Virus record (IMG/VR): IMGVR_UViG_3300020419_001248
Location: 1-20,614 of that record
Source: a virus
Length of the DNA: 20,614 bases
Reading direction: 5' to 3' (one strand)
Of this stretch, positions 1-20,614 are shown piece after piece (position 1 is the first letter of the stretch; the number at the start of each line of letters is the position of its first letter). The position numbers and the translations under genes were made by a program. The notes under the pieces are model-generated. The model did not search any database. It saw only the letters and a program-made list of their open reading frames with translations, and had not been told where the DNA came from.

Positions 1-15
1 AGAAGTGTTTTTATT

Positions 16-1110
16 ATGCAGAAAGAAATATTAAGTTTTAGTAAAATGCATGTTGATGGTGACCTAGTCATCACAGCTACGCAAGATGAATTACTTTTAA
101 AAGATGGTAGAGTATTAAAAGATACCATGTCAGGTCTTTGGAATGTTACATTAGGATATTCTAATAATAATATAAAACAAGCAATGATGAATCAGTTAGT
201 TAAATTACCTTATTCAAGTAATTTTTCTGGTTATCATAGTGAAACAACAGAAAAATATGCTGAAGAAATTTGTAAAAGAACAAATATGAGTAGAGTTTAT
301 TTTACAAATAGTGGTAGTGCAGCCGTTGAAACTGCCATAAAATTAACAGGTAAAGAGATAGCAGTTTGTGGAAAACATAGTTATCACGGCTCTACAATAT
401 TAAGTGCAAACGCTAGTGACCAAGATATAAACAAATTTTGGGGTATACAAAATCCTATGAGTGTTCATAAGTTTGAAGATGTTGAAGATTTGATTAGTAT
501 ATGTAAAGGTCTTTATGATATGTCATTTGTAATTATTGAACCAGTTGTAGGTGCAGGTGGTGTTTATGATTGGCCACCAGAAATATGGAAAGTTTTAGAA
601 GAGTATCAACAAAAAGGTGGTATTGTAATACTAGATGAGACCGTTACAGGTTTTGGTAAACTAGGTACAATGTTTGCATTTGAAAAAATTAATTTTAAAC
701 CAGATATGATTGTATTAGGTAAAGGTATTACAAACGGATATTTTCCTATGGGAGCGTGTTTAATAAGTGAAAGAATTGAAAAATCAGTTAGAATGTTTAA
801 TCATGGTTTTACTTATTCAGGACATCCTGTTGGATGTGCAGCTGCTTTAGAAGTGTTAAAAGAAATTGATAGAAGTTATGAATGGTTGTTAGAACATAAA
901 CAAATTAAAGGTGCGACAAGACAATTTGGATGTATGGGTGCAATTGATTTTGAAACACCAAAACAATCATTAACATTTATTAAAAAGATGAGAGAAAAAG
1001 GTTACATATTAGAAGATGGCTCAGAAAATGTATCAACTGCCGTGTTTTGTTTACCGTTTATATTTCAAGACCATGAATTATTTGAAGAGGCAATAAAAGA
1101 ATGTATTTAA
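16..1110 (+). CDS. Class-III PLP-dependent aminotransferase, glutamate-1-semialdehyde aminotransferase-like, shortened
   Basis: Class-III aminotransferases move an amino group (or isomerise an amino aldehyde) using pyridoxal phosphate (PLP). Seen here: an N-terminal strand of the type DGRVLKDTMSGLWNVTLGY, the phosphate-binding NSGSAAVETAIKL segment (about residues 98-110), the YHG motif at 123-125, the cofactor aspartate in ILDETVTGFG (D207) and the Schiff-base lysine in LGKGITNGYFPMG (K236), followed by TYSGHPVGCAAALE. All key residues are present, so activity is plausible. At 364 residues it is shorter than the usual 420-450; the missing length lies mainly after the AAALE segment, in the C-terminal small domain. 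The frame stays open to the window edge and there is no clear ribosome site, so a start upstream of the window cannot be excluded. Its last 10 bases overlap the next gene, a second PLP-enzyme-like protein, which suggests a joint pathway. Substrate not predictable. Confidence 0.85.
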   Translation: MQKEILSFSKMHVDGDLVITATQDELLLKDGRVLKDTMSGLWNVTLGYSNNNIKQAMMNQLVKLPYSSNFSGYHSETTEKYAEEICKRTNMSRVYFTNSGSAAVETAIKLTGKEIAVCGKHSYHGSTILSANASDQDINKFWGIQNPMSVHKFEDVEDLISICKGLYDMSFVIIEPVVGAGGVYDWPPEIWKVLEEYQQKGGIVILDETVTGFGKLGTMFAFEKINFKPDMIVLGKGITNGYFPMGACLISERIEKSVRMFNHGFTYSGHPVGCAAALEVLKEIDRSYEWLLEHKQIKGATRQFGCMGAIDFETPKQSLTFIKKMREKGYILEDGSENVSTAVFCLPFIFQDHELFEEAIKECI

Positions 1111-1904
1111 CACCATCATACACAATACAATTTCCTGAAGTTAAAAGAGTAGTAGGTCATTATTTTACAAAGTTGTATGACCATGATAGTCTTATAAAAG
1201 ATAGACATGATATACAAGATAGATTTATTGAAAACTTTGTACCTTGGCTTAATAAAGGTCACATAAAATTTAAAGGCCTAAAAGACTTTAAACATGTTTA
1301 TATTACAAATGGCGTATCTGATTTTATCTATACATCTATGATAGAGCATAGTTTAAGACCGATAGTAATAAAAGATGACTACCCAGCATATGTTGAACAT
1401 GCTAAAATATTGGCTAAGTCTAATATTGGTTTAAGAAATAGAACAAACTATTTGAGTTTACCATTTTATAATACAGCAAATGAACATGAAAAGACAAATG
1501 ACTTATTAAAACAAGAGAATACATTTGTTGACCTTGCGTGGGCAGGTGGTTCTGGTCTTAAAAAAACATATGATTTAAGCAAAGTATCATACGCTTCTTT
1601 TAGTTTTAGTAAAATGTTTGGTATTCAATATCATAGAGTAGGCATATCCTTTTCTAAAAAACCAATTAGGACTTTAGAAATGTATAAGAAAGAGGCGTAT
1701 GTTAACCTTGCAGGTATAGGCCTAGTAAATCAATTAATGTCATTTTCACCATCATATTTCTATGATAAATATAGGGAGATTGCAAATACTATTTGTGATA
1801 AATTAGATATAGAAACCACACCTAGTTTATGGTTTGGTTTAAAACATAACAAGAAAGTACCATTATTAAATGAATGGATTAGAATAAATGCGAACGGAAA
1901 CTAA
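1101..1904 (+). CDS. Minimal fold-type-I PLP-dependent aminotransferase-like protein
   Basis: This looks like a reduced member of the aspartate-aminotransferase superfamily. Seen: VYITNGVSDFIYTSM (about 66-80), resembling the glycine-rich start of the PLP site; an aspartate in FVDLAWAGG (D144) where these enzymes hold the pyridine nitrogen; then SFSFSKMFGIQYHRVGISF, with lysine K171 in the usual SFSK context and R179 after it, as in SK..G.R.G of class-I/II enzymes. A WIRIN segment near the C-terminus may carry the substrate-carboxylate arginine. At 267 residues it is far below the usual 380-420, with compressed N- and C-terminal parts, so it may be a divergent phage form or act only with a partner. 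It overlaps the class-III aminotransferase before it by 10 bases and the hydroxylase-like gene after it by 17 bases. Superfamily call is fairly good; reaction unknown. Confidence 0.6.
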   Translation: MYLTPSYTIQFPEVKRVVGHYFTKLYDHDSLIKDRHDIQDRFIENFVPWLNKGHIKFKGLKDFKHVYITNGVSDFIYTSMIEHSLRPIVIKDDYPAYVEHAKILAKSNIGLRNRTNYLSLPFYNTANEHEKTNDLLKQENTFVDLAWAGGSGLKKTYDLSKVSYASFSFSKMFGIQYHRVGISFSKKPIRTLEMYKKEAYVNLAGIGLVNQLMSFSPSYFYDKYREIANTICDKLDIETTPSLWFGLKHNKKVPLLNEWIRINANGN

Positions 1905-2655
1905 AGAATTTTTTGAATATACTAAAAGTCTACCTTTTAAAGATATAACTCATTTTTGGGATATACCTTATAAAGAAATGTTAGATGAAATAAAAACGGT
2001 TGATGAAAGTTATTGGCGAAGACCTTTTGACGCTGATAATGACCAGATAGATAGAATGAAACTAGATGATTCTAAAAGTGTTAATCATTATCCTGGTATG
2101 AAAGGTGACCTTATTGAAGCACATGGTTGGAAGAGTTTATGTTTTTTAAATGAAACTGGTGATAGTAAAGACCAAATTACAAGATTTCCACCTGTATTTA
2201 ATACAGCAGGTGATTACAAAGAAACTTTAAAATATTTTCTTAACAATAGAAAATGGACAAATGTATCTGATTTTAGTCCTACATTAGTTAAATTTTTTAA
2301 AGAAGTTATAAGCAAATATATGCATGTAGGCCAAATATTTGTTACTAGATTAGAAAGTGGAGGTGTTATAACTGAACACAATGATATACCTGAAGATAGT
2401 AAACATTTATTAGATGGCGAACAAGTGCATATGTTTGATATGTTGAATACATTTAACTTATGTTTAAATCATGTTAAGTCATGTTATAGTGTATTTGACA
2501 ATAAAGTAATGCCAGCATATGATGGTTGTTTAAGATGGACAAATGTTGGTAAAAAACATTGGGTTGTTAATATGAATAGAAAACCACAATATCAAATTAT
2601 ATGGCAAGGTATATACAAAAAACAATTTAGACAACTGGTAATGGAGAATAAATAA
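1888..2655 (+). CDS. Aspartyl/asparaginyl beta-hydroxylase-like Fe(II)/2OG dioxygenase
   Basis: Fe(II)/2-oxoglutarate (2OG) dioxygenases hydroxylate or otherwise oxidise a substrate while decarboxylating 2-oxoglutarate. The C-terminal half carries the expected triad: H164-x-D166 in VITEHNDIPED, H224 in GKKHWVVNMNR, and R231 seven residues later, a good 2OG-carboxylate binder. The phrase order (HND, then a strand, then a VGKKHWVVN-like strand followed by NRKPQYQI) resembles the aspartyl/asparaginyl beta-hydroxylase family more than prolyl hydroxylases. The N-terminal 130 residues are aromatic and acidic with no domain I recognise. The start lies inside the end of the previous gene, giving a 17-base overlap. 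Known members of this family act on protein or peptide Asp/Asn, but the target here is inferred only from family. Confidence 0.68.
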   Translation: MRTETKEFFEYTKSLPFKDITHFWDIPYKEMLDEIKTVDESYWRRPFDADNDQIDRMKLDDSKSVNHYPGMKGDLIEAHGWKSLCFLNETGDSKDQITRFPPVFNTAGDYKETLKYFLNNRKWTNVSDFSPTLVKFFKEVISKYMHVGQIFVTRLESGGVITEHNDIPEDSKHLLDGEQVHMFDMLNTFNLCLNHVKSCYSVFDNKVMPAYDGCLRWTNVGKKHWVVNMNRKPQYQIIWQGIYKKQFRQLVMENK

Positions 2656-2659
2656 TAAC

Positions 2660-3328
2660 ATGGCACAAATTAACAATCACGAATTTTATGGTTTAGATAC
2701 AGCATATGTAGAAAAACACAAAGAATTATTTGACTTTTTTGAAGGTCAAAATTTAGACATTGAAATAAATGATGACTTTGAACAATTAAAAACTATACTA
2801 ACAAGTAAAGACAAAGACGATTACGCTTACGACTTTGACCCAGCGTTTGAAACTTTTTTAGATAATTCTACAGGTTTTATTTTATATTTAAGATATAACA
2901 ATGAAGTAGTTGCTACTTACGCAGCTAAAAAATTATCCTTACCTGTTTTCATAGAAGGTATGAAATTAAAATATCCTGGTAATTATGATACTATTGATAA
3001 TTTCCCTGGTCAATCAGCTTATAGTTCATGTCAATGGGTATCTAAAGACCATAGAGGTAAAAAGTGGGGAAGAGTATTAGACCATTTGAAAAAGAATTTA
3101 TGTTTTGACCTTATGAAGTGTGAAACAAATTTTGCTATACATAAATCAGATTTAAGAGATTATCATGTAAATCATTTAGCATATTCTAATAGTAAAAGAC
3201 TAGCAGTTATACCAAACGGTGATGTTGGTGGTGCAGGTGAAGTTATTGACAAAGAATATTGGATAGCATATTCTTCAATTACAGAATGGGCAGATAAACA
3301 AAGTGAAGTTAAAACATTATACACTTAA
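2660..3328 (+). CDS. GNAT-like N-acetyltransferase, divergent
   Basis: GNAT enzymes transfer an acyl group from acyl-CoA to an amine. The middle of the protein has a strand pair typical of the fold (FILYLRYNNEVVATYAAKK, about 73-92), then SCQWVSKDHRGKKWGRVLDHL (about 123-143), which resembles GNAT motif A: a beta-strand, an RGK-type loop for the CoA pyrophosphate, then a helix. The consensus glycine in R-x-x-G-x-G is a lysine here, so the match is imperfect. The N-terminal 60 residues are acidic and unlike any domain I know. It starts 4 bases after the preceding oxygenase gene and overlaps the next gene by 26 bases, so it belongs to the same translational unit. Acetyl acceptor unknown. Confidence 0.5.
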   Translation: MAQINNHEFYGLDTAYVEKHKELFDFFEGQNLDIEINDDFEQLKTILTSKDKDDYAYDFDPAFETFLDNSTGFILYLRYNNEVVATYAAKKLSLPVFIEGMKLKYPGNYDTIDNFPGQSAYSSCQWVSKDHRGKKWGRVLDHLKKNLCFDLMKCETNFAIHKSDLRDYHVNHLAYSNSKRLAVIPNGDVGGAGEVIDKEYWIAYSSITEWADKQSEVKTLYT

Positions 3329-3914
3329 AAATTTTTTATCTAGTCAAGAGATAGATTCTTTTAATTATAACATTAAACAAGAATTTAAATCCGATACTGG
3401 CGATTTAACATTATATCATCAAAAAATATCTACCTCTATTATAGAAAAAATTAAAAAATGTATAGGCGAATTTACTATTAGACACTCTCACATATACAAT
3501 TTAAAACAACCTTATAGATTACATTGTGATTCAGGCCAAGAAAATAATTCTTACTATACAATTATAGTGCCTTTAGATAAAAATCCTCAAGGTGGTCTTT
3601 TTATTATGAATCAATGGTCAGATAAAGCATATAGTTTAGATGATTACTACACACAAAATATTCAATCAGTTTTAAATTTTGAAGAAAGAAAAGAAAAGAT
3701 AAATGAATTTAATCCTAACATATCTCTACCTGACACAATAGATTTTAAACATATTAAAGATAAGAGAGGATTTTCAGTAAAAGATTATATTGATTATGAA
3801 TATAATAAAGCTATAATGTATCCTGGCAAATATTATCATTGTAGTCAAAATATAAAAAACTTTACAGGTAAAAAATCTTTAGCTATATTTACTAATGAAA
3901 CACTACACACTTAA
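3303..3914 (+). CDS. Small Fe(II)/2OG oxygenase-like protein
   Basis: A 203-residue protein with the layout of a compact double-stranded beta-helix oxygenase. Seen: H74-x-D76 in YRLHCDSG, a strand YYTIIVPLD followed by GGLFIMNQWS, the distal H179 in MYPGKYYHCSQN, and a basic K190-K191-S192 group 11-13 residues later, where a 2OG-binding Arg or Lys is expected. The start is GTG, the first in-frame start codon available before the N-terminal KHYTLKNFLSSQEID; this N-terminus resembles the common F(L)..eeid opening of phage 2OG enzymes. It overlaps the gene before by 26 bases and the gene after by 20 bases, and both overlaps share a near-identical 18-base sequence (separate repeat entries). Substrate unknown. 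Confidence 0.6.
   Translation: MKLKHYTLKNFLSSQEIDSFNYNIKQEFKSDTGDLTLYHQKISTSIIEKIKKCIGEFTIRHSHIYNLKQPYRLHCDSGQENNSYYTIIVPLDKNPQGGLFIMNQWSDKAYSLDDYYTQNIQSVLNFEERKEKINEFNPNISLPDTIDFKHIKDKRGFSVKDYIDYEYNKAIMYPGKYYHCSQNIKNFTGKKSLAIFTNETLHT
3312..3329 (+). repeat. Junction repeat copy 1 (gene-overlap sequence)
   Basis: aaacattatacacttaaa lies in the overlap of the GNAT-like gene and the GTG-started oxygenase-like gene. It matches the sequence at 3898-3915 at 16 of 18 positions. In one frame it ends the upstream protein (TLYT then stop); in another it encodes the KHYTLK near the N-terminus of the downstream protein. Confidence 0.8.
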
Positions 3915-4446: not shown

Positions 4447-4449
4447 ATA
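4442..4449 (+). promoter_or_regulatory. Phage late promoter box TATAAATA
   Basis: An exact TATAAATA, the late-promoter -10 motif of T4-like phages read by the phage late sigma factor. It overlaps the stop codon of the preceding gene and lies 16 bases before the start at 4466, with an AAGGAG ribosome site between (4454-4459). It would open transcription of the virion block. Confidence 0.65.
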
Positions 4450-4465
4450 GTTAAAGGAGATAATT

Positions 4466-8604: not shown

Positions 8605-11600
8605 ATGGCAGATTTTAAACTAGGACGAATTAAATTTAAATGGAGAGGAGATTGGGCGGTCTCAACTGCTTATCTCATTGACGATATCGTCAAATATGGC
8701 GGTAATACTTATGTTGTATTATCAAATCACACATCACAATCTTCAGTAGCAAATTTTTATACAGATTTATCAGCAGGTAAATATGGATTACATACAGAGG
8801 GGCTTTTCTTTAAAGGAGATTGGGCAGGTTCTACATTTTACAAATTAAACGATTTAGTAAAATACGGTGCATATCAATATAGATGTAAATTACAACACAC
8901 TTCAGCAACAGATTTTGCAATAGGTTCAAATTGGGAAGTTTATGCTGAAGGATTACAATGGGAAGATTCTTATAGTTCTAGTACAACTTATCAAGATGGT
9001 GATGTAGTATCTTATGGTGGTTACACTTATGTTTATGTAAATGCTACACCAAGTTCTGGAAATACTCCAACAGATAATTCATATTGGGATGTTGTAACAA
9101 CAGGTTTTAAGGCATTAGGCACATACTCACACGGAACAGCATACAAAACAGGTGATACCGTTCAATACGGTGGTAATAATTATGTTGCAACTGCCAATCA
9201 TTCAAGTCAATATCCAGCAAACACTAACGGTACAACAAATACATCTTACTGGACATTAAACCTTGAAGGATTTAATTACAGAGCGGCTTATGACGCTACA
9301 ACAACTTACAATATTGGTGATGTTGTAAGACTAACGGCAACCTCTTATGTGGCTATAAAAGATAGAGTTCTTAATGTATCTCCAGATTCAGACGCAACTT
9401 CTTGGCAAGTGGTTGCACAAGGTGACTCAGGCGCAGTATTAAGCACAAGAGGTGATTTAATTAAACAAGGTGCTGCTGCCTCTGAAAGATTAGCAATTGG
9501 TCCAGTTGGTTCTGTTTTAACAACAGATGGTACAGACCCTAGTTGGTCTGCTCCAGAAGGTGCAAATGTTAAATATGTTGCAAACTCTGGTTCGGATAGT
9601 AATGCAGGTTCACAATATTTACCTTATAAAACAATTAACTATGCATTATCACAAGCTACTTCAGGAGATGTTGTTGAGATAGATACAATTTCAGGTGGTA
9701 CAGGCGGTGTTCCAGCAGTTTATGATGTAAACCAACACACTACAACAGGTTCAGGAACAGGATTTAAAGCTAGAGTAACAACAGACGGTTCATCAACTCC
9801 TACTATTATAATTATAGATGGTGGTTCAGGTCATGCAGCTGGTGATGATATTACATTACTTGGTTCAAATTTAGGAGGTGCTTCAAACTTAACTTTTAAT
9901 GTAGTTTCTGCTTCAATTGGTGATGTTATCTATGTTAAAAACGGAGTTTACAGAGAAAATTTACCTTTAAAAATCCCAGCAGGTGTTACCGTTCAAGGTG
10001 AATCTTTAAGAGGTACTGAAGTAAGACCCGCTTCAGGTACAGGTTCTCAAATTAAAACAATTTCAACAATTAATGGTGGAACAGGTGGTACTCCGGGAAC
10101 ATATTCTCATGTACACCAAACTAGTGCAACTGGTTCAGGAACAGGAGTTGTTGTAAATATTACAACAGACGGTTCATCAACACCTTCAATTACAATCTAT
10201 AATGGTGGTTCAGGATATGCTGCTTCTGACCAAGTTACAATAGGTGCAGCTAAAATTGGTGGCGCTTCTGATATAGTATTTACGGTTGCTACATTAGAAA
10301 ATAATGACGCTTCTAATATGTTCTTAATGAACAACAGCACAAACCTAGTTCAAATGTCAATGAAAGGTTTAACAGGAACGCCTGGTGCTGGTGGTACTAG
10401 TAAGGCTGCTGTTGTATCTTTAGACCCAGCAGGTTCTGTTACAACTGCTTCGGGTTATGTTCAAAACTGCTCTTCAGTTAGTGCAAACGCAACTGGTATT
10501 CAAATTGACGGACTTTTACATAGTGCAGGTAACAAATCAATTCTTGCAAATGACTTTACACAAATAAACTCTGATGGTCGTGGTGTTCATGCATTAGGTG
10601 GTGGTCGTGGTGAGATGGTTTCAATTTTCACATATTATTGTGATAAATCATTTTACGCAGAATCAGGTGGATTTATTAGAGGTTTAAATTGTTCATCTGC
10701 TTATGGTGAAAAAGGTGCTGAGGCTACAGGTACTTTAGCAACTGAAACTGCTGTATCAGTTCAAGCTCGTGGTCAAATGTTGAAATATGACTCAACACAA
10801 TTTATAGGCGCTGCTACAGAATCAGATGTACAAGACATGATTGCTACACAAGGTGTCGGTACTGCCACAATTTCAGGTGCTGGTGGTGCAAGTGCAACGG
10901 TCTTTAGAACAAATATCTCAACAGACCATTTTCATATAGAAAGTATTACAGGTTCATTTGTTAATGGCGAAACATTAACAATTACAAAAGAAGACTCTTC
11001 AACATTCCAAGTTAAAGCGGCTTCTTCATCAGCTCAAACAGGACAAACAGGTGCCTTAATTGCCGTTGACTCAAGTGATAGCACACTTGGTAGTGCAAAT
11101 GTAATTAAACTTGGTGCTAATGTTCAGTTTGCAGGTGATTCAACTTATTACAGAGTATCTGCTGTTAGTGAAGAAAATACATCAAATAGACAAGCGACAA
11201 TTCGTTTAACTTCTAGTGTTACTTCGGGTAATGCAATTGCAGATAACACAGCAACAACAATTACAACAGGTTATTCAAACATTCGTTTAACAGGTCACGA
11301 CTTCCTAAGCATTGGTACTGGTGACTTTACAACATCAAATTATCCTGGTGGTCCATCACAGGCTGCTGACCAATCAGACGAAGTAAATGAATTGTTAGGT
11401 GGTCGTGTTTACTTTACATCAACTGACCAAAATGGTGACTTTAGAGTTGGTGATTTATTCAGAATTGAACAGGCAACTGGTGTTGCAACTCTAAACGCAG
11501 ACGCATTTGACCTTTCTGGTCTAAGCGAATTACAATTAGGTTCTATTGGTGCTGAATTAGGTGCAACAATTAATGAATTTAGTACAGACGAAACACTAGG

Positions 11601-12120
11601 TAATGACGCTAATACTGCCGTACCTACTGAAAGAGCAATTGTAGGTTATACTCAAAGAGATAAAATGGGAACAGGTCATTTAGTGCCACCAACAGGTACA
11701 ACGGCACAAAGACCGACAGGTGGTTCACTATTTACAGGTGGTATAAGATATAACTCAACTCTAGTTACATGGGAAGGTTATAACGGAACACAATGGACAG
11801 GCTTAGGCGGTGGTAATCCATGGGCAACATTTACTGCTGATGGTTCAACTGCTTTAACGGTAGCTGCAAATGATAGATATTTTATTGATACTACAACGGC
11901 TGCTCAAACGGTAACTTTACCAGCCTCACCTCAAACAGGTGACCAAGTATCGTTAATTGATTTAGCTGGTACTTTTGATACTAACAATTTAACGGTGGGT
12001 AGAAATAGTTTAAAAATTATGGGATTATCGGAGGATTTAGTGATATCAACAGAGAATGCTGGTATTCAATTAGTTTATACTGGTTCTACATACGGATGGA
12101 AATTAACAAGTAACATCTAA
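8605..12120 (+). CDS. Long tail fibre with tandem aromatic modules and interrupted beta-helix
   Basis: 1171 residues, the largest gene here and probably the main host-contact fibre. Residues 12-270 hold five tandem units of 49-57 residues, each with an aromatic/charged start, 'Y..gD.V.YGG..Y' and a His/Thr/Ser turn; this resembles small carbohydrate-binding (chitin-binding type 5/12-like) modules. At about 323-475 the KYVANSGSDSNAGSQYLPYK and VYRENLPLKIPAGVTVQGE phrases mark a pectate-lyase-like right-handed beta-helix (DUF1565 type). Two related Gly-rich inserts (about 362-436 and 486-565) interrupt it. Later, GGRVYFTSTDQNGDFRVGDL (about 932-951) is a phrase shared by marine T4-like fibres. 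The C-terminal 120 residues end in TYGWKLTSNI. No catalytic residues evident, so a binding role is preferred to a lyase role. Confidence 0.85.
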   Translation: MADFKLGRIKFKWRGDWAVSTAYLIDDIVKYGGNTYVVLSNHTSQSSVANFYTDLSAGKYGLHTEGLFFKGDWAGSTFYKLNDLVKYGAYQYRCKLQHTSATDFAIGSNWEVYAEGLQWEDSYSSSTTYQDGDVVSYGGYTYVYVNATPSSGNTPTDNSYWDVVTTGFKALGTYSHGTAYKTGDTVQYGGNNYVATANHSSQYPANTNGTTNTSYWTLNLEGFNYRAAYDATTTYNIGDVVRLTATSYVAIKDRVLNVSPDSDATSWQVVAQGDSGAVLSTRGDLIKQGAAASERLAIGPVGSVLTTDGTDPSWSAPEGANVKYVANSGSDSNAGSQYLPYKTINYALSQATSGDVVEIDTISGGTGGVPAVYDVNQHTTTGSGTGFKARVTTDGSSTPTIIIIDGGSGHAAGDDITLLGSNLGGASNLTFNVVSASIGDVIYVKNGVYRENLPLKIPAGVTVQGESLRGTEVRPASGTGSQIKTISTINGGTGGTPGTYSHVHQTSATGSGTGVVVNITTDGSSTPSITIYNGGSGYAASDQVTIGAAKIGGASDIVFTVATLENNDASNMFLMNNSTNLVQMSMKGLTGTPGAGGTSKAAVVSLDPAGSVTTASGYVQNCSSVSANATGIQIDGLLHSAGNKSILANDFTQINSDGRGVHALGGGRGEMVSIFTYYCDKSFYAESGGFIRGLNCSSAYGEKGAEATGTLATETAVSVQARGQMLKYDSTQFIGAATESDVQDMIATQGVGTATISGAGGASATVFRTNISTDHFHIESITGSFVNGETLTITKEDSSTFQVKAASSSAQTGQTGALIAVDSSDSTLGSANVIKLGANVQFAGDSTYYRVSAVSEENTSNRQATIRLTSSVTSGNAIADNTATTITTGYSNIRLTGHDFLSIGTGDFTTSNYPGGPSQAADQSDEVNELLGGRVYFTSTDQNGDFRVGDLFRIEQATGVATLNADAFDLSGLSELQLGSIGAELGATINEFSTDETLGNDANTAVPTERAIVGYTQRDKMGTGHLVPPTGTTAQRPTGGSLFTGGIRYNSTLVTWEGYNGTQWTGLGGGNPWATFTADGSTALTVAANDRYFIDTTTAAQTVTLPASPQTGDQVSLIDLAGTFDTNNLTVGRNSLKIMGLSEDLVISTENAGIQLVYTGSTYGWKLTSNI
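8640..9420 (+). repeat. Five tandem 49-57-codon modules in the long fibre
   Basis: Units begin near 8640, 8809, 8956, 9110 and 9275. Each encodes a Trp/Tyr-led strand, then a GD.V or DD.V turn and a YGG..Y strand; the fifth is divergent (RLTATSYVAIKD). Nucleotide identity is low, so these are old protein-level repeats rather than recent DNA copies. Confidence 0.75.
9690..9910 (+). repeat. Gly-rich fibre module, copy 1
   Basis: Encodes SGGTGGVPAVYDV through SNLTFNVVSA. It shares with 10065-10300 the exact words ggttcaggaacagga (9748 and 10132) and acaacagacggttcatcaac (9778 and 10162) at a constant offset of 384 bases. It lies between SGDVVEI and IGDVIYV, two similar phrases of the beta-helix. 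Confidence 0.75.
10065..10300 (+). repeat. Gly-rich fibre module, copy 2
   Basis: Second copy of the 9690-9910 module, encoding NGGTGGTPGTYSHV through ASDIVFTVATLE. Its preserved DNA words show a younger duplication than the five N-terminal modules. Confidence 0.75.
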
Positions 12121-12138: not shown

Positions 12139-13794
12139 ATGTCAGATTTACAAGATTTTACGCAGAAAAATAGAAGACACACAGGTAATGCTGGTATTAC
12201 AGCGTCTAGCACAGGTTCAGGTGATGGTGGCAGAGTAAATGAAAAAGGTCGTTTAAGATTTAATGACGATACGGACTTGATGGAATATTACAATGGTTCT
12301 GAATGGAAACCTATTGACTCACCTCCTGTTATTACAACTATTGCAGTTGATGGTGGTACTGCTGGTACTACAGCAACGATTGATAACGAAGCTTCAGGCA
12401 CATTTTCTCTTGCAGTAAACGGTTCTTTATTTGATACAACAGGTGCTGCTGTTACTTTAGTTGGTACAGCTGAAACAATATCTGCTAATTCAATAACAAG
12501 AAATAGCGCAAATTTATTGACCGCTGTATTTACTAATTCAGCAGTTGATATTTCTAATAGCCCTTACACGGTTAAAGTAACTAACGGTTCAGGATTATCT
12601 GCTGAATTAGCAGACGCTATATCTGCTGACAGCACGACACCAACATTTACAAACGCAGCTGATACAACCGTTTCATTGTTTGATAGTGGTAGAGATGTTG
12701 GTATTGCAGCTGCCGATTTATGTGGTGCTTCAGGCGCTACTAACTTTGCTGTTACAATAGGTTCATTACCAGCAGGTCTTTCAATGACATCATCCACAGG
12801 TGCAATCACAGGAACAGCAAACGCAGTTGGCACAGATACAACATCAACATTTACGGTTACGGCTACAGGTGATGACGCAACGGCAACAAGACAATTTAAG
12901 ATTACGATTAAAGCTCCAAGTATAACATCTATAACTTCAACAGGTCCAGGTACTTTTTCAGTTCCTACAGGAGTTTCTACATTGCAGTTATTATTAGTTG
13001 CAGGTGGTGGTTCAGGTGGAAGTTCATTAGGAAGTGGCGCAGGTGGTGGAGGTATGTTAGAAGGAACGCTAACGGTAACACCGGGTTCAACTATCGCATA
13101 TGATATGGGAGCTGGTGCTGCTCAAGGTTCGCCTAATTCTGATTATCATAGTGGTAATTATGGTTCAGATACAACATTTGGACCTATTCCAGGTCCTGGC
13201 GCAACAGCAACTGCTCTTGGGGGCGGTTATGGATGTGGTCACGGAGGTGGTTCTCCAAAAGGTGACGGAGGAAAACCTCAACAAGCTACTCCAAATATTA
13301 ATATAGGTGGCACAGGAGGTTCCGGCGGTGGAACAGGAAGTGCAGACGGCCCTCAAACACAATATAGAGGTGGTTATGGAAACCAAGGTGATAGTGCCGG
13401 ATTAACAGGTTATGGAAATGACGGCGGAAACGGCGGTGGCGGTAACTCTCAAGGTTCACATAATGGTGGCGGCGGCGGTGGTGCCGGCGGTGCAGGTGAA
13501 GACGCAGGTACTGACGGTACAGGTCAAGGTGGTGACGGCGGAGCAGGAAGAGTTTCAAATATAACAGGTTCTCCGGTAACTTACGCAGGTGGCGGAGGAG
13601 GTTCTTACTATAATGAAGGCCCTCACGGAAGTAAAGGTGTTGGTGCAGCCGGTCCAGGTGGTGGAACAGCAGGCGTTCCTTCAGGAAGGTCAAGTGCTGG
13701 TGGTGCAAACACAGGTGGCGGTACAGGCTGTGGAGGATATCCAAGCGGCGGTGGCGGAACAGGTGGTCCTGGAATAATAGTTATTAAAATTTAA
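12139..13794 (+). CDS. Tail fibre adhesin with Ig-like domain and glycine-rich tip
   Basis: 551 residues. The N-terminal part contains GRLRFNDDTDLMEYYNGSEW (about 35-54), a short strand-turn phrase common to fibre ends. Residues about 195-257 form a putative Ig domain (He_PIG type: IGSLPAGLSMTSSTGAITGT, then STFTVTATG). From about 270 to the end is a glycine-rich domain beginning GPGTFSVPTGVSTLQLLLVAG and continuing as long Gly/Ser/Asn runs with His and Tyr, ending GPGIIVIKI. This matches the glycine-rich sandwich tips of phage adhesins, for example gp38-type and related receptor-binding tips, where Gly-rich loops form the receptor contact. The DNA of this half is visibly richer in GGC/GGA and G+C than its neighbours. 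Likely a receptor-binding protein; receptor unknown. Confidence 0.8.
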   Translation: MSDLQDFTQKNRRHTGNAGITASSTGSGDGGRVNEKGRLRFNDDTDLMEYYNGSEWKPIDSPPVITTIAVDGGTAGTTATIDNEASGTFSLAVNGSLFDTTGAAVTLVGTAETISANSITRNSANLLTAVFTNSAVDISNSPYTVKVTNGSGLSAELADAISADSTTPTFTNAADTTVSLFDSGRDVGIAAADLCGASGATNFAVTIGSLPAGLSMTSSTGAITGTANAVGTDTTSTFTVTATGDDATATRQFKITIKAPSITSITSTGPGTFSVPTGVSTLQLLLVAGGGSGGSSLGSGAGGGGMLEGTLTVTPGSTIAYDMGAGAAQGSPNSDYHSGNYGSDTTFGPIPGPGATATALGGGYGCGHGGGSPKGDGGKPQQATPNINIGGTGGSGGGTGSADGPQTQYRGGYGNQGDSAGLTGYGNDGGNGGGGNSQGSHNGGGGGGAGGAGEDAGTDGTGQGGDGGAGRVSNITGSPVTYAGGGGGSYYNEGPHGSKGVGAAGPGGGTAGVPSGRSSAGGANTGGGTGCGGYPSGGGGTGGPGIIVIKI

Positions 13795-14042: not shown

Positions 14043-14046
14043 GTCT

Positions 14047-15903: not shown

Positions 15904-16515
15904 ATGAAAGGTGATAAAAATTTTACATATTTATTTGGTAGTCCTATATGGATTTATCAAATTACATCTATTGATAAGAATATATTAAAAAATTATATTC
16001 TTGATTTAAGAAATAAAGATAACAATGGTCAAGTTCTTTCTAATAGTGGTGGAGGTTGGCATTCACACAATATACCTTTAGATACACCAGAGTTTAAATC
16101 TTTTTATTTTCTTATAACAGATGTAATGAATTCTTGTTTTTCTGAATTAAATGGTAAAACTGATAAATATAAAGTGGTCATAGAAGATTGTTGGGCAAAT
16201 GTAAATACAAAAGGTTCTTTTAACTGGCCTCATATACATACCGGATTTTTGTCAATGGTTTATTATGTAGAAGCAGATGAAGATACAGGAGATATTCAAT
16301 TTTTACACCCCTCTAAACTACAATCATTAAATTGGGATTTTGATATGTTTAACAATGAAAATATAACATCAACAGACGCAAGTTGGAAATTTAATCCTGT
16401 TACGAATAGATGTTTAATTTTTCCTAGCTGGTTAGAACATAAAGTAAATGCTAACAATACAAATAAAAAGAGAATTAGTATTTCGTTAAATACAAAGTTA
16501 GAAAAAATATTATGA
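15904..16515 (+). CDS. 2OG-oxygenase-like protein of the TIGR02466 type (HxH variant)
   Basis: 203 residues. The opening TYLFGSPIWIYQI and the centre (DCWANVNTKGSFNWPHIHTG, then FLSMVYYVEAD, GDIQFLHP) match TIGR02466-type putative 2OG-Fe(II) oxygenases of marine phages and bacteria, whose core reads roughly 'W.n....g..n..H.H....sgvyYv'. H110-x-H112 stands where most 2OG enzymes have HxD. Distal H179 is in FPSWLEHKVN and R190-x-S192 follows, giving the 2OG-binding RxS pair. Its last bases overlap the halogenase gene by ATGA, tying the two together in expression. A substrate shared with the halogenase is possible but only inferred from position. Confidence 0.7.
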   Translation: MKGDKNFTYLFGSPIWIYQITSIDKNILKNYILDLRNKDNNGQVLSNSGGGWHSHNIPLDTPEFKSFYFLITDVMNSCFSELNGKTDKYKVVIEDCWANVNTKGSFNWPHIHTGFLSMVYYVEADEDTGDIQFLHPSKLQSLNWDFDMFNNENITSTDASWKFNPVTNRCLIFPSWLEHKVNANNTNKKRISISLNTKLEKIL

Positions 16516-18092
16516 AAAATGTAAAAAGTATTATAATTTTAGGTGGTGGTAGTGCAGGTTGGATGACAGCCTCTACACTTATAAAAGAATTTCCTGACAA
16601 AGAAATTACCGTAATAGAAAGTCCTAATACTCCAATTATTGGTGTAGGTGAAAGTACAATTGGTGGTATAAAATATTGGACATCTTATCTAGGTATAGAT
16701 GATACTGAATTTTTTAAATATACAGACGCTACTTACAAATTAAGTATTAGATTTGAGGACTTTTATAAAAAAGGTGATGGTGGTTTTCATTATCCTTTTG
16801 GTAAATCAATTTATAATAGTGATGGTGGTTATAATGATTGGATATTAAAAAAACACATTTATCCAGAAACTCATAGGTCAGATTTTGCTGATTGTTTTTT
16901 TCCTCAAATGGCTTTAGTAAATAATAACAAACTTTTTGATAATGAGAAAAATGAATTACCTTTTAACTTTAGAGAAAATACAGCATATCATTTTGACGCA
17001 ACAAAATTTGGTTCTTTTTTAAAAGATAGATATTGTAAACCTAGAGGTGTAAAACATGTTGTTGATGATATAAAATCAGTAGAGGTTTCTAAAGATGGCA
17101 TACACTCGTTAGTTTCTGATAGTAATATGGGAGTTGGAAATAACAAATATAAAGCAGATTTATATTTTGATTGTACAGGTTTTAAATCATTATTATTAGG
17201 TAAATCATTACAAGAAGAATTTGAATCTTATTCAGATATGTTACCTAATAACTCAGCATGGGCAACTAGATTGCCTTATAATAATAAAAAAGAAGATATA
17301 AATTGTTATACAAATTGTACAGCCATTGAAAATGGTTGGGTGTGGCAAATACCTTTATGGTCTCGTTGGGGCACAGGTTATGTTTATTCAGATAAATTTG
17401 TAGATGATGAAACAGCTTTAAAAGAATTTAAAAATCATTTAGATAAAAAAGGCCAAGATTATAGTAACGCAGAGTTTAAGAAAATTAAAATGCGTGTTGG
17501 TATACATAAGAGATTATGGGTTAAAAATGTTGTAGGTATAGGTTTAGCGGCTGGGTTTATTGAACCTTTAGAAAGTAATGGTTTGTTTTCAGTACATGAA
17601 TTTTTAATGAGGTTTATTAGAAACGCACAGAGAGATATCATTACACAATGGGATAGAGATAATTTTACCTTTCAATGTAAAAAATTATTTAGAAATTTTG
17701 CAGAATTTGTTGCTATGCATTACGCAATGTCGAATAGAGATGATACAGAATATTGGAGAGCTAACGCTAATAAAGAATGGGAACCGGCTCTAGTAAATTT
17801 ATCTCCTTCATTTAAAGAAGGATTTTTAAATGCAGCCAATCAAAGAGATTGGCAAAGAAATTTTCCAGATGGTGGTTTACCTTGCATAGCGTTTGGCATG
17901 GAGTGGTATCCTTTAGACGCACCTACTATTAAATACCTTGATGGTAATAATGATGAACAATTTAAACAAAGGTATCACGATTCGGTTGTTAGTCTAAATA
18001 GTAGAAAAAATCAATGGGATTTAGTGGTAAAAGATAAACTAAGCTTTTATGATTATCACAAACAAAAATTTTATAATGATAGGAATGATTAA
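16512..18092 (+). CDS. Flavin-dependent tryptophan-halogenase-like protein
   Basis: Flavin-dependent halogenases use reduced FAD and oxygen to make hypohalous acid and install chlorine or bromine on an aromatic ring. Seen: the FAD-binding GGGSAGWM (11-18), the IGVGESTIGG loop, a lysine in ATYKLSIRF (K76) aligning with the catalytic Lys79 of PrnA, the halogenase signature W-x-W-x-I-P in NGWVWQIP (276-281), and AAGFIEPLESNGLF with E351 matching the catalytic glutamate (Glu346 of PrnA). The length, 526, equals that of PrnA-type enzymes (about 520-540). The key residues are all intact, so activity is plausible; it needs a flavin reductase that is not in the window. Free tryptophan, a peptide or another phenol/indole could be the substrate. 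ATGA overlap with the gene before, one-base TAATG overlap with the gene after. Confidence 0.9.
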   Translation: MKNVKSIIILGGGSAGWMTASTLIKEFPDKEITVIESPNTPIIGVGESTIGGIKYWTSYLGIDDTEFFKYTDATYKLSIRFEDFYKKGDGGFHYPFGKSIYNSDGGYNDWILKKHIYPETHRSDFADCFFPQMALVNNNKLFDNEKNELPFNFRENTAYHFDATKFGSFLKDRYCKPRGVKHVVDDIKSVEVSKDGIHSLVSDSNMGVGNNKYKADLYFDCTGFKSLLLGKSLQEEFESYSDMLPNNSAWATRLPYNNKKEDINCYTNCTAIENGWVWQIPLWSRWGTGYVYSDKFVDDETALKEFKNHLDKKGQDYSNAEFKKIKMRVGIHKRLWVKNVVGIGLAAGFIEPLESNGLFSVHEFLMRFIRNAQRDIITQWDRDNFTFQCKKLFRNFAEFVAMHYAMSNRDDTEYWRANANKEWEPALVNLSPSFKEGFLNAANQRDWQRNFPDGGLPCIAFGMEWYPLDAPTIKYLDGNNDEQFKQRYHDSVVSLNSRKNQWDLVVKDKLSFYDYHKQKFYNDRND

Positions 18093-18685
18093 TGATAAGT
18101 AATATAGAAAATTTTATAGGTGTATTTGATAATGTTTTTGATGAACAATATTGTAAATCAATAATAGACCATTTTGAAAAATTAAATAATTTTCATAAAA
18201 CTCAAAAAAGAGCTGACATTACTGGACATCCTGCTATTGAACAACAAAATGATGTTTATTATCCTATAGGTGAAAATGACTCTACTTTTATTAGTGCTAA
18301 TGATTCATTTTTATTAGAATTTAATTTAAAATTACAAGATTGCTATAAATTATATGCAAAAAAATATCCTATATTAGATGGTATGATGAAACATAGATTA
18401 AATTTAGATGTTAAATTACAAAAAACAATTCCAGGAGAAGGTTATCATGTGTGGCATTGTGAACATGATGGTGTACCATTTGGTAAAAGACTATTTTTAG
18501 TAATATTATATCTTAACGAAGTTTCTGGTGGTGAAACAGAATTTTTATACCAACATAAAAGAGTTGCACCTAAAACAGGTAGACTTATGATTTGTCCTTC
18601 AGGTTTTACGCATACACATAGAGGTAATCCTCCTTTAGATGGACTTAAATATATTTTAAATGGATGGATAGAGTTTATAGAATGA
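18092..18685 (+). CDS. Fe(II)/2OG oxygenase, prolyl-4-hydroxylase-like
   Basis: 197 residues. Opens IENFIGVFDNVFDEQYCKSI, a standard 2OG-enzyme N-terminal helix. The core reads GYHVWHCEHDG: H122-x-E124 is the likely metal pair (HxE in place of HxD), as in marine phage members with 'Y..WH.E'. Then LFLVILYLNEVSGGETEFLYQH, the usual strand with GGeT.F, PKTGRLMICPSGFTHTHRG with distal H174 or H176, and K186 in GLKYILNGW as the probable 2-oxoglutarate anchor. All landmarks are in order, so an active oxygenase is likely. Coupled to the halogenase upstream by a one-base overlap and to the next gene by ATGA. Confidence 0.8.
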   Translation: MISNIENFIGVFDNVFDEQYCKSIIDHFEKLNNFHKTQKRADITGHPAIEQQNDVYYPIGENDSTFISANDSFLLEFNLKLQDCYKLYAKKYPILDGMMKHRLNLDVKLQKTIPGEGYHVWHCEHDGVPFGKRLFLVILYLNEVSGGETEFLYQHKRVAPKTGRLMICPSGFTHTHRGNPPLDGLKYILNGWIEFIE

Positions 18686-19383
18686 AAAGAAAAATAGTAT
18701 ATTGGGCTCCTTGGTTTGTTCCACAAGAAGAACATCATTGGAACATGTTGTTCATAGAGCCTCAAAAATTGTTAACTAAAGTAGTCAAAGATGTATCATC
18801 TACAAGTGATGTAAGATTAAAAGCTATGATAAGATGTCCTGCTTTTTCTAGTATTGGTAAAAATACCTTCTTTGTTGAAAATCCTATGACTACTGAATTT
18901 GATATAGTAGATGGAGAAATTAAATACAAAGGAGATAATTTTTATTATTGTACATTATCAAAAGGCAAAAGCACATTTAAATATGGATTATCTTATATAT
19001 TTTTTTCTGAAGATGATTTAGAAATAATGATGACAGCTCCACACTTTTCTCAAACTGAACATACAAATTATGCTAAATTGGTACCTGGAAAATTCAATAT
19101 ATCAAAATGGTTTAGACCTGTAAATTTAGAAATGTTATTATATGATAATTATTTCAAAATGCCTGAACATGAACATATGGCTTATTTTCAATTTTTAACA
19201 GACGATAAAGTTGAATTAAAAAGATTTGAACTAAATGAAACTTTAAGAAAAATATCAGATACATGTTCTACCGTTAGTGATTGGTGGAGAAATGTTCCTT
19301 TAATTAATAGATATGATAGATTTTTAAAAACAAAAACTAATAGACTTGTAATGAAAGAAATAAAAAGACAATTGGTGGAATAA
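18682..19383 (+). CDS. Unknown protein of the oxygenase/halogenase operon
   Basis: 233 residues when started at the ATG of the ATGA overlap at 18682. An in-frame ATG at 18664 would add six residues inside the previous gene, but the coupled start fits the operon's habit. Begins KRKIVYWAPWFVPQEEHHWN and includes RCPAFSSIGKNTFFVEN, a long strand-rich middle (GLSYIFFSEDDLEIMMTAPH), and DNYFKMPEHEHMAYFQFLTD with a His/Glu cluster near residue 168. The C-terminus is a basic helix. Two Trp/Phe-rich segments suggest a beta-sandwich. Similar proteins sit beside oxygenases in marine T4-like phages as far as I recall, with no function known. I cannot name a family. Confidence 0.55.
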   Translation: MKRKIVYWAPWFVPQEEHHWNMLFIEPQKLLTKVVKDVSSTSDVRLKAMIRCPAFSSIGKNTFFVENPMTTEFDIVDGEIKYKGDNFYYCTLSKGKSTFKYGLSYIFFSEDDLEIMMTAPHFSQTEHTNYAKLVPGKFNISKWFRPVNLEMLLYDNYFKMPEHEHMAYFQFLTDDKVELKRFELNETLRKISDTCSTVSDWWRNVPLINRYDRFLKTKTNRLVMKEIKRQLVE

Positions 19384-19887
19384 ATGATAAAAATATACGA
19401 TAATAAAGTACCTTTTCATATTATGCACGATATACACGAATTTGTAATAAATTCAAGGTTTTATATTACGGGTTGGAAAGATAAAGATTATGTCAACAAA
19501 CACTCTATATATTCAGATTGGTCAATTGATGATTTAAAAAATGCTGGATTATATTCTTACCTAGAAGAAATACCATCTGTTGATTTTAGTAAATGGTATA
19601 AAACTATGGTAAATCTAAGCCACCCTAGTGACCATTACTACACACACACTCATGGAGAAAATGATTATGTTTTATTATATTATGTAAATTTAGAATGGCG
19701 TGATGAGTGGCATGGTGAAACTTTATTTTATGACCCTTTAAATTTACAAAAAATAGAGTTTGCTTCATCTTTTATACCAGGCAGAATATTACAATTTGAT
19801 GGCATACAACCTCATTCAATTAGACCACAATCAAGTGTTGGTCCTCAATATAGATTTACAATATCAAATTTTTTTAAGAAGAAATAA
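19384..19887 (+). CDS. Small 2OG-oxygenase-like protein (HxH variant)
   Basis: 167 residues, the smallest oxygenase-like protein here. Seen: VNLSHPSDHYYTHTHGEND with H88-x-H90, the strand YVLLYYVNLEW then EWHGETLFYDP, the distal H144 in FDGIQPHSIRP, and R157-x-T159 in QYRFTIS as the 2-oxoglutarate-binding pair. The HxH in place of HxD matches the other HxH protein at 15904-16515, so the two may share a subfamily, although their N-terminal parts differ. It starts directly after the previous stop, and heme oxygenase starts directly after its own stop. Iron binding with HxH is not certain. Confidence 0.65.
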   Translation: MIKIYDNKVPFHIMHDIHEFVINSRFYITGWKDKDYVNKHSIYSDWSIDDLKNAGLYSYLEEIPSVDFSKWYKTMVNLSHPSDHYYTHTHGENDYVLLYYVNLEWRDEWHGETLFYDPLNLQKIEFASSFIPGRILQFDGIQPHSIRPQSSVGPQYRFTISNFFKKK

Positions 19888-20472
19888 ATGTTAGACATAA
19901 AAGAATTAACCTGGGAACATCATAAAAATGCAGAAAGACAAGCGTTTGTAAAAATACTTATGTCTGGTCAAATAGATGAAAAACTATATGCTACTTTTTT
20001 ATACAATCAATTACAATGTTATTCTGTATTAGAGAAATACGGTTTACATAATTCTTTGTTTAGAGATACGCCTAATCTATTAAGAGGTGAACATATACAT
20101 TATGATTATCAAGCTTTATGGGGTGATATTGGTTCACCACCAGAAATAACTCAAAGCACAAAAGATTATGTAGCTCATATAGAAACAATACAAGATGAAG
20201 CTATGAAGTTATATGCTCATGTTTATGTTAGACACATGGGCGATTTGTCTGGCGGTCAAATGATAAAATCAAAAACACCAGGTCCTAATAGATATTATAT
20301 ATTTAAACATAATGAAGTTAGAGATTATAGACAAACGGTGAAAGAAACAATTAACACATATTTAAATGTATATGAACATTCGGTTGTTCCTGAAGCAAGA
20401 TATTGTTTTGAAAGTGCAACAAAATTATTTAAAGAAATGAAGGAGCTCCATGATTTGGGAAAGACTGATTAA
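19888..20472 (+). CDS. ho: Heme oxygenase, ferredoxin-dependent type
   Basis: Heme oxygenase cleaves heme to biliverdin, CO and iron, drawing electrons from ferredoxin in cyanobacterial and phage types. Seen: the proximal-helix phrase WEHHKNAERQAF, with H12 as the likely heme-iron ligand (aligned to H-x-x-A-E of known enzymes), and the distal-helix motif YVRHMGDLSGGQMI (113-126), with D119 at the place of the catalytic aspartate. The all-helical look and the EHIHYDYQALWG segment also fit. At 194 residues it is shorter than cyanobacterial HO1 (about 240) and has no membrane anchor. It overlaps the next gene, a probable bilin reductase that would use biliverdin, by 23 bases. Phage heme oxygenases of this kind are known from marine cyanophages and from ho/pcyX viral DNA. 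Confidence 0.9.
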   Translation: MLDIKELTWEHHKNAERQAFVKILMSGQIDEKLYATFLYNQLQCYSVLEKYGLHNSLFRDTPNLLRGEHIHYDYQALWGDIGSPPEITQSTKDYVAHIETIQDEAMKLYAHVYVRHMGDLSGGQMIKSKTPGPNRYYIFKHNEVRDYRQTVKETINTYLNVYEHSVVPEARYCFESATKLFKEMKELHDLGKTD

Positions 20473-20614
20473 GTGGGAACAAGATACAATACGATTACTC
20501 AATAAAGAATTGATGGAGTATGAAGAACCAGGTATGGAAAGATTTAATAAACCTGGTTGGACAAATAGAACATGGAAAAATGAGTTTATTAGAAGAGCTC
20601 ATGTAGATGTTGTT
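20450..20614 (+). CDS. Probable ferredoxin-dependent bilin reductase (PcyX/PebS-like), N-terminal part
   Basis: Open from an ATG inside the end of the heme oxygenase gene to the window edge: 55 codons, no stop. An AAGGAG ribosome site (20440-20445) lies four bases before ATG. The protein starts MIWERLIKWEQDTIRLLNKE and reaches PGWTNRTWKNEFIRRAHVDV; the 'NR.w....fR..H.ev' pattern aligns with the early strands of phycocyanobilin:ferredoxin oxidoreductase (PcyA: ENRCYQTPQFRKMHLEL). These enzymes reduce biliverdin to pink or blue bilins with ferredoxin electrons. The order heme oxygenase then bilin reductase matches ho/pcyX and ho/pebS cassettes of marine phages. The catalytic Asp/His part is beyond the window, so the exact enzyme cannot be set. 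Confidence 0.65.
   Translation, partial: MIWERLIKWEQDTIRLLNKELMEYEEPGMERFNKPGWTNRTWKNEFIRRAHVDVV

What the first reader, a model, noticed from the sequence alone, without database searches (positions are those of the whole stretch)
1..20614. A second forbidden word: ACAGT/ACTGT (ACWGT) also absent
I checked some 37 CAGT and some 27 CTGT sites; none is preceded by A, although A is the commonest base. ACGGT and ACCGT, the other two ACNGT forms, are frequent. Thr-Val pairs are written ACGGTN or ACCGTN throughout, although ACA and ACT are the usual Thr codons. In other frames AGC replaces the usual AGT after an xAC codon (AAC-AGC near 10330, GAC-AGC at 12628) and TGC replaces TGT (AAC-TGC at 10465). 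A palindromic five-base word with central A/T looks like a restriction/modification or other protein-binding site. I know no common enzyme with exactly ACWGT specificity, so this may mark an undescribed host defence.
Basis: seen in the sequence. Interest (0 to 1): 0.8.

Follow-up and report, generated by a model that had tools for sequence, protein, structure and literature searches.

The report
Marine phage genomes lacking word ACWGT
A marine bacterial virus, and several related viruses that reached the same state separately, have lost the five-letter DNA word ACAGT/ACTGT from every place where it should occur, most likely to escape an undescribed DNA-cutting defence of their bacterial hosts.

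Summary
ACAGT/ACTGT (ACWGT) occurs 0 times in the 20,614-base record; about 25 are expected from composition, 36 ± 3 from protein- and junction-preserving shuffles (0 of 1000 reach zero). ACSGT is in excess. The window is a whole IMG/VR fragment of a pelagimyophage relative. It is a lineage trait: ACWGT is 0 in three further records of 109, 73 and 51 kb (280 expected) but at expectation in Mosig, HTVC008M and Melnitz. On a polymerase tree the state changes at least 7 times. At 81 sites where a tolerant relative has ACWGT, no avoider compared keeps it; most single-step differences are synonymous and at the centre, W to S.

Best explanation: selection against a nuclease that cuts ACWGT but not ACSGT, most likely a host Type II restriction system. 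Neither enzyme nor host was found. 71 of 397 genomes of the Pelagibacterales order carry C5 methyltransferases over cut-off; of 12 such loci examined, one has a clear Type II restriction enzyme. Sampled host genomes do not clearly avoid ACWGT. A phage-borne nuclease is not excluded. The kind is known; this specificity appears unassigned.

The parts
1..20614 (.). ACWGT-free stretch: the whole IMG/VR record (linear fragment), 0 ACAGT and 0 ACTGT
8605..12120 (+). tail-fibre gene (1171 aa; PHROG 9851, E 2.4e-197), the anchor for 80 relatives; of 10 ACWGT sites in the nearest tolerant relative L004 none is kept here
10333..10338 (+). AAC-AGC in frame: the rare Ser codon AGC (20 of 151 AGY) used after AAC, where AGT would make ACAGT
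10465..10470 (+). AAC-TGC in frame: TGC (6 of 60 TGY) where TGT would make ACTGT
12628..12633 (+). GAC-AGC in frame: AGC after GAC, avoiding ACAGT
16512..18092 (+). tryptophan-halogenase-like gene (PHROG 2928); part of the phage gene content, also free of ACWGT

Best explanation
The phage lineage has been purged of ACWGT by selection because an endonuclease met inside its host cells cuts ACAGT/ACTGT but not ACGGT/ACCGT. Most likely this is an orthodox Type II restriction-modification system carried patchily by strains of the host population (probably SAR11/Pelagibacterales, inferred only from related isolates). Surviving phages lost their sites, mostly by synonymous changes that turn the central A/T into G/C. 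Lineages that stop meeting the enzyme regain the word, so the state flips repeatedly in the family. Shown: the absence, its W-specificity, the synonymous and centre-biased differences at homologous sites, its turnover across relatives, and that the presumed host order carries patchy Type II-like methyltransferases. Inferred: that the agent is a restriction endonuclease, that it is host-borne, who the host is, and which way each change went.
For: Absence beyond codon-aware nulls. 0 seen against 305 expected over four records, 253 kb, with ACSGT 562 seen against 465 expected. Sharp word boundary. Of 255 distinct viral contigs fetched as relatives, 27 have observed/expected under 0.15, 21 lie between 0.15 and 0.6, 192 are at 0.6 or more, 15 were too short to score. 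At least 7 state changes on an 84-row polymerase tree (79 rows scored), 6 forced by well-supported branches. In 23 avoider-tolerant pairs 0 of 161 ACWGT comparisons are kept (81 distinct sites of the tolerant partners) against 222 of 583 for control W-centred words; 68 of 110 single-step differences are at the centre and 89 of 110 are synonymous; with one avoider per partner, 0 of 81 kept against 127 of 319. Other words behave alike with different patterns (CATG 4, TCGA 5, CASTG 4, ACGT 2 changes), which fits a changing set of restriction specificities. 71 of 397 Pelagibacterales-order genomes have a C5 methyltransferase over cut-off and 23 of 397 a D12 one; of 12 C5 loci whose neighbours were scanned, one has two methyltransferases and a PADLOC Type II REase hit at 2e-19. 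Literature, as passages read: 19 of 172 Ca. P. ubique genomes carry systems classed as R-M (PMC11066056). Literature, as abstract read: site avoidance in phages concerns mainly orthodox Type II sites (PMC6286503).
Against: No ACWGT enzyme was found. 60 methyltransferase-bearing genomes of the order (55 of the 71 with a C5 and 5 of the 23 with a D12 methyltransferase; 20 kb each, three shorter) avoid none of the tested words clearly; pooled ACWGT is 1363/1412 = 0.97. The isolates Mosig and HTVC008M, whose recorded host is HTCC1062, tolerate ACWGT while avoiding many other words. Reports hold R-M to be scarce in SAR11: one of more than 100 genomes (PMC7029224, passage), none in 8 MAGs (PMC9516812, passage), none in 14 MAGs of one bloom (PMC11066056, passage). 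The host of this phage is not known.
Confidence: 0.66

Rival explanations
1. A phage-borne nuclease (for host-DNA breakdown or for excluding competing phages) cuts ACWGT, and the phage that carries it, or regularly meets rivals that carry it, must lack the word.
For: Genomes of the presumed host order do not clearly avoid the words that the phages lack and R-M is reported scarce in SAR11, yet several words are wholly absent from one phage. A GNAT-like gene behind the DNA polymerase is present in 11 of 13 avoiders against 5 of 52 tolerants with enough flank. In one contig (L012) all 10 ACWGT sites lie in the first 5.8 of 13.7 kb, as expected if the trait travels with a genome block.
Against: On six independent pairs the GNAT link is 3 to 0 with 3 ties, p 0.25, and Mosig and G004 carry the gene yet tolerate ACWGT. 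No restriction-endonuclease domain was found by Pfam in 20 chosen ORFs of G001-G003; these are a part of the 277 ORFs predicted there. The ORFs shared by avoiders G001 and G002 but unmatched in Mosig, Melnitz, HTVC008M and G004 (G001 35601-49282) include a tail-fibre gene; the rest match tail, chromosome-condensation-regulator-like or unknown families or nothing, none a nuclease.
Confidence: 0.2
2. Mutation, not selection: the word is methylated at its cytosine and decays by deamination to ATWGT or ACWAT.
For: C5 methyltransferases exist in the presumed host order. ATAGT is 1.27 of expectation in the avoiders.
Against: Only 29 of 110 single-step differences are C>T at position 2 or G>A at position 4; 68 are at the centre. 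ATAGT is 1.19 in tolerant phages too. Mutation pressure would leave residual sites; four records have none.
Confidence: 0.04
3. A by-product of codon, dinucleotide or codon-pair bias.
For: ACWGT is mildly low (0.78 of second-order expectation) in tolerant phages as well.
Against: Codon-aware nulls give 36-45 expected. Relatives with similar composition have the word at expectation.
Confidence: 0.01
4. Avoidance of a regulatory or other DNA-binding site rather than of a cutter.
For: The word is a short palindrome.
Against: Total absence in several lineages, several other palindromic words eliminated in the same genomes, and repeated flips between relatives fit changing nucleases better.
Confidence: 0.05

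Closest known systems
Elimination of orthodox Type II restriction sites in lytic phages (Rusinov et al. 2018, PMC6286503; abstract read)
   Same: A short symmetric word wholly or almost wholly removed from a dsDNA phage genome; the abstract reports complete or almost complete elimination for about one tenth of viral genomes.
   Different: No enzyme of this specificity is known to me (recall; REBASE could not be searched). Several words are eliminated at once, and the set changes between relatives.
GANTC depletion in pelagiphages (PMC9516812; passages read)
   Same: Phages of the presumed host order lose a short palindromic word, and its presence or absence partitions the phage tree.
   Different: There the word matches a known host methyltransferase motif; here GANTC is not clearly depleted in the window (GAWTC 19/25, GASTC 8/8) and ACWGT has no known methyltransferase.
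ACNGT-cutting Type II enzymes such as HpyCH4III/Tsp4CI (names and site recalled, not from a call)
   Same: Same outer bases AC...GT.
   Different: They would also remove ACSGT, which is in excess here.
CASTG-type site (TspRI, recalled)
   Same: Also a 5-base word with a two-fold degenerate centre; also absent from the window (0, 13 expected).
   Different: CASTG is low in most of the tail-fibre relatives (pooled 0.12 and 0.14 of expectation in the two GATC classes); ACWGT avoidance is confined to particular lineages.

Membership tests
Type II restriction-site avoidance | Word far below composition and codon expectation | tested here: met
   0 against 24.8, 36.2 and 45.4 expected
Type II restriction-site avoidance | Symmetric 4-6 base word with a sharp boundary | tested here: met
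   ACWGT 0/567; all one-base neighbours 0.67-1.68
Type II restriction-site avoidance | Sites lost by selection, mostly through silent changes | tested here: met
   0 of 161 comparisons kept (81 distinct sites), 89 of 110 single-step differences synonymous; the direction of change is not known
Type II restriction-site avoidance | Cognate restriction endonuclease in the host | tested here: inconclusive
   Patchy C5 and D12 methyltransferases and one REase-bearing locus in the presumed host order, none tied to ACWGT
Type II restriction-site avoidance | Cognate methylation or cleavage measured | not testable with these tools
   No long-read signal or wet assay available
ACNGT-specific enzyme as the driver | ACSGT avoided as well | tested here: not met
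   ACSGT 55 seen, 31.2 expected in the window; 562/465 over four records
GANTC avoidance of pelagiphages | GANTC depleted | tested here: not met
   GAWTC 19/25 and GASTC 8/8 in the window
Methylation-driven deamination | C>T and G>A changes dominate | tested here: not met
   29 of 110 single-step differences
Phage-borne nuclease | A nuclease gene shared by independent avoiders and absent from tolerants | tested here: inconclusive
   None found by Pfam in 20 chosen ORFs nor by PHROGs in 7 ORFs of the block shared by G001 and G002; records are incomplete

The most novel reading that the evidence does not exclude
The forbidden words of pelagimyophages are a readable record of nucleases nobody has described. 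ACWGT would be a new sequence specificity, imposed either by cryptic R-M systems in streamlined SAR11 populations thought to be nearly free of them, or by nucleases that the phages themselves carry and exchange, so that each phage clan has its own 'password' of missing words. The tail-fibre set even shows two alternative passwords: GATC and ACGT missing with CCGG and CATG present, or GATC and ACGT present with CCGG and CATG missing.
Probability: 0.35. Interest if true: 0.8.

Novelty: new member of a known kind. Interest (0 to 1): 0.6.

Why it matters
SAR11 is reported to have few restriction systems, yet T4-like phages of its kind lack several restriction-type words completely and change the set between relatives. 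Each missing word is a prediction of an enzyme specificity that can be looked for in methylomes, and for uncultured phages it could serve as a marker of which host strains they meet. ACWGT is a clean case because the word is defined to the base and close relatives differ.

Tried and rejected
Looked for the agent in the phage. ORFs of G001, G002 and G003 were compared with Mosig, Melnitz, HTVC008M, G004 and the window, 20 chosen ORFs were scanned against Pfam, 7 ORFs of the G001/G002-shared block (two read from G001, five from G002) and the GNAT-like gene against PHROGs, and genes around the polymerase were tested for association with avoidance. The gene most enriched in avoiders is a GNAT-like one (named by the Pfam match of its G003 homologue; the G001 copy matched no PHROG). 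It fails independence (3 to 0 pairs, p 0.25) and occurs in tolerant phages, so it stays a lead. In one search the avoider L268 is the same record as the query genome G001; one search left it out. Many other ORFs were not scanned.

Looked for the agent in hosts. Three methyltransferase families were searched in 397 genomes. 20 proteins beside such genes, from 16 of the 24 loci L415-L438 (all 12 C5 loci, 4 of 12 D12 loci), were scanned with Pfam, and ten of those 20 with PADLOC and NCBIfam. One clear REase (L420), one PD-(D/E)XK endonuclease just under its cut-off with a staphylococcal-nuclease-like gene near it (L421) and one AIPR neighbour (L415) turned up; none is linked to ACWGT. The lowest ACWGT ratio, 9/17.8 in L466, is not significant among 60 genomes.

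Sampled stretches of 39-50 kb from eight other marine phages for ACWGT: P-SSM2, S-SSM7, S-SKS1, P-TIM40, AG-345-F15, HTVC023P, S-WAM1, AG-345-P14. Ratios 0.85-1.25, none avoids it.

Rejected: codon bias, deamination, ACNGT specificity, a regulatory site (see rivals). Not done: structure predictions, a REBASE look-up (not available), a strict codon-pair shuffle, a polymerase placement of the window itself (no polymerase gene was seen in the fragment).

Limits: relatives were picked by similarity to four query proteins, one of them from an avoider, so their proportions are not a census. Fragments share ancestry. One search counted 24 pairs and 166 comparisons, but G001 and L268 are one record; one search repeats it without L268 (23 pairs, 161 comparisons, 81 distinct partner sites) and with one avoider per partner (12 pairs, 81 sites), and its numbers are the ones used here. 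ACWGT is not strictly all-or-none: 21 of 240 scorable contigs are intermediate.
Full report
What the window is. The 20,614-base window is a complete IMG/VR record, a linear fragment, so the rest of its genome cannot be read. Its genes are those of a T4-like marine phage: tail fibres, 2OG-Fe(II) oxygenases, an aminotransferase, a tryptophan-halogenase-like protein and a heme oxygenase. The nearest named genome found is Pelagibacter phage Mosig EXVC030M (Kyanoviridae; 76.7% DNA identity over 18% of an 11,868-base query; tail fibre 63% protein identity). The host of the window's phage is inferred from this and not shown.

The observation. ACAGT and ACTGT are both absent. The maximal-order Markov expectation is 24.8 sites (z -6.5, the lowest of all 5-mers). 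Shuffling synonymous codons gives 45.4 ± 4.1, and keeping the junction dinucleotides as well gives 36.2 ± 3.4; none of 1000 shuffles of either kind reached zero. ACGGT/ACCGT are in excess, 55 against 31.2. Before a valine codon the rare ACG and ACC stand in 36 of 36 cases, although ACA and ACT make up 501 of 582 threonine codons. In the same window GATC (0, 22.9 expected), ACGT (0, 20.4), CASTG (0, 14.4) and CTGCAG (0, 6.3) are also absent beyond the stricter shuffle.

It is not a property of composition. In 80 contigs that encode a relative of the tail fibre, ACWGT runs from zero to expectation. The named isolates Mosig, Melnitz and HTVC008M have it at expectation: 259/265, 398/410 and 361/352. 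Three longer records lack it wholly: G001 (109,063 bases, 126 expected), G002 (72,856, 114 expected) and G003 (50,929, 40 expected). With the window that is 0 against 305, while ACSGT in the same four is 562 against 465. The pooled avoiders give 0 against 567 under a second-order model, and each one-base neighbour lies between 0.67 and 1.68. Of 255 distinct contigs fetched by four relative searches, 27 are below 0.15 of expectation, 21 between 0.15 and 0.6, 192 at 0.6 or more, and 15 were too short to score: two peaks with some intermediates. These were chosen by similarity, one search having been seeded with an avoider, so the proportion is not a census. Stretches of eight other marine phages, cyanophages mostly, do not avoid ACWGT.

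It turns over. On a FastTree tree of 84 DNA polymerases (15 avoiders, 64 tolerants, 5 unscored) the ACWGT state changes at least 7 times, 6 of these forced by well-supported branches; shuffled labels need 13.9 on average, so the trait is also clustered. On the same tree CATG changes 4 times, TCGA 5, CASTG 4, ACGT 2, and GATC is avoided by all 80 rows scored for it. Contig L012 looks mosaic: its 10 ACWGT sites all lie in its first 5.8 kb and the last 7.9 kb have none (p 0.0015, one of 16 contigs tested). L057 was also uneven (p 0.007), L005 and L211 weakly so (p 0.03-0.04), the other 12 not at 0.05.

How the sites differ. For 23 avoider-tolerant pairs (polymerase or tail fibre, each avoider with its nearest tolerant relative), 0 of 161 ACWGT comparisons are kept; they rest on 81 distinct sites of 12 tolerant partners. 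Control W-centred words are kept in 222 of 583 comparisons. With one avoider per partner it is 0 of 81 against 127 of 319. Of 110 single-step differences 68 are at the centre, W to S; 89 are synonymous; 29 are the C>T or G>A changes that deamination would give (the first count, held one record twice). The direction of each change is not known. This is the pattern of selection against a protein that reads ACWGT and not ACSGT.

Who reads it. The commonest known reason is Type II restriction: Rusinov et al. (PMC6286503, abstract read) report that site avoidance in phages concerns mainly orthodox Type II sites and is complete or nearly so in about a tenth of viral genomes. SAR11 is said to have little R-M: one in more than 100 genomes (PMC7029224, passage), none in 8 MAGs (PMC9516812, passages), none in 14 MAGs of a bloom but systems classed as R-M in 19 of 172 Ca. 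P. ubique genomes (PMC11066056, passages). In 397 genomes of the order of a Pelagibacterales genome, 71 have a C5 methyltransferase over the Pfam cut-off (a few of these just over it), 23 a D12 methyltransferase and 356 an N6_N4 methyltransferase (probably the CcrM-type enzyme in most, by recall). Of 20 proteins beside such genes scanned with Pfam, one was a PD-(D/E)XK endonuclease just under its cut-off, one a staphylococcal-nuclease-like protein and one an AIPR protein; PADLOC, given ten of them, named one, in a locus with two C5 methyltransferases, a Type II restriction enzyme at E 2e-19, and gave weak endonuclease matches to the PD-(D/E)XK one. NCBIfam named none of the ten. So patchy R-M exists in the presumed host order, but nothing ties it to ACWGT. 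Against the simple host story, the host genomes themselves do not clearly avoid the phages' words: ACWGT is 0.84 (ACSGT 0.87) in 893 kb around 16S genes and 0.97 in 60 methyltransferase-bearing genomes.

A phage-borne agent. G001, the longest avoider record, is close to Mosig in gene content, and no restriction-endonuclease domain was found in 20 chosen ORFs of G001-G003. A block that avoiders G001 and G002 share and that has no match in Mosig, Melnitz, HTVC008M or G004 (G001 35601-49282) holds a tail-fibre gene and proteins matching tail, chromosome-condensation-regulator-like or unknown families; two of the seven scanned matched nothing. It hints at a shared host range, not at a nuclease. 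A GNAT-like gene directly behind the DNA polymerase is found in 11 of 13 avoiders and 5 of 52 tolerants with enough flank, but in only 3 of 6 independent pairs does it go with the trait (p 0.25), and tolerant Mosig and G004 have it. It remains a lead.

What is new. Elimination of restriction sites by phages is well known. What is not, as far as the searches go, is an ACWGT specificity: 'ACWGT' occurs in 8 papers of the library, whose titles concern virus detection, PCR and other unrelated subjects (listing only), and 'ACNGT' in 15, several of them on Helicobacter and on restriction of phage DNA (listing only). REBASE could not be searched. Filed therefore as a new member of a known kind. The combinatorial side is notable. 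In the tail-fibre set of 81 (window included), 63 avoid GATC and ACGT (0.03 and 0.00 of expectation) with CCGG and CATG at 0.58 and 0.55, while 12 have GATC and ACGT at 0.69 and 0.55 with CCGG and CATG at 0.03 and 0.01; 6 lie between. ACWGT avoidance occurs on both backgrounds (L010 and L016 on the second).

Verdict. The enzyme and the host are unknown, and the next tests are methylomes and cloned candidate loci.

Noticed in passing
L002-L081 (tail-fibre loci) and window: Two mutually exclusive sets: 63 of 81 lack GATC and ACGT but hold CCGG and CATG at about half of expectation; 12 hold GATC and ACGT but lack CCGG (3/90) and CATG (4/288); 6 lie between.
   Followed up: partly
window 1-20614; relatives: CGCG is absent or nearly so (0/137 in the 28 ACWGT avoiders, 3/772 in the 192 tolerants) and CASTG is low in both (10/162 and 364/1474).
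   Followed up: partly
L082-L084 (Mosig), L168-L170 (HTVC008M), L165-L167 (Melnitz): Several six-base words are also at zero: TCTAGA and AGTACT in both Mosig and HTVC008M, GAATTC and TCAAGA in HTVC008M, AACGTT and GGTACC in Melnitz.
   Followed up: no
G001:C1:88628-91239 (L283); G003:C1:12332-31999: Behind the DNA polymerase of G001 stand a GNAT-like gene, an MT-A70 adenine methyltransferase and a DruA (PF14236) homologue; G003 has one N6_N4 methyltransferase over cut-off and two weaker matches, two of the three within 7 kb of the polymerase.
   Followed up: partly
G001:C1:35601-49282 and its G002 counterpart (L287): ACWGT- and CATG-avoiding G001 and G002 share a tail-fibre-containing block that has no match in Mosig, Melnitz, HTVC008M and G004.
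   Followed up: partly
L420 (G094:C1:526952-530914): A Pelagibacterales-order genome with two adjacent C5 methyltransferases and a convergent Type II REase (PADLOC, 2e-19); tandem C5 methyltransferase pairs recur in other genomes of the order.
   Followed up: partly
L415 (G384:C1): A C5 methyltransferase next to an AIPR (abortive-infection phage-resistance) gene in a Pelagibacterales-order genome.
   Followed up: no
L012:1-13732: Probable mosaic: all ACWGT sites in the first 5.8 kb, none in the last 7.9 kb.
   Followed up: no
L519, L520, L522, L523, L525, L526 (cyanophage and marine-virus stretches): CCGG is at zero in six of eight sampled marine phages.
   Followed up: no
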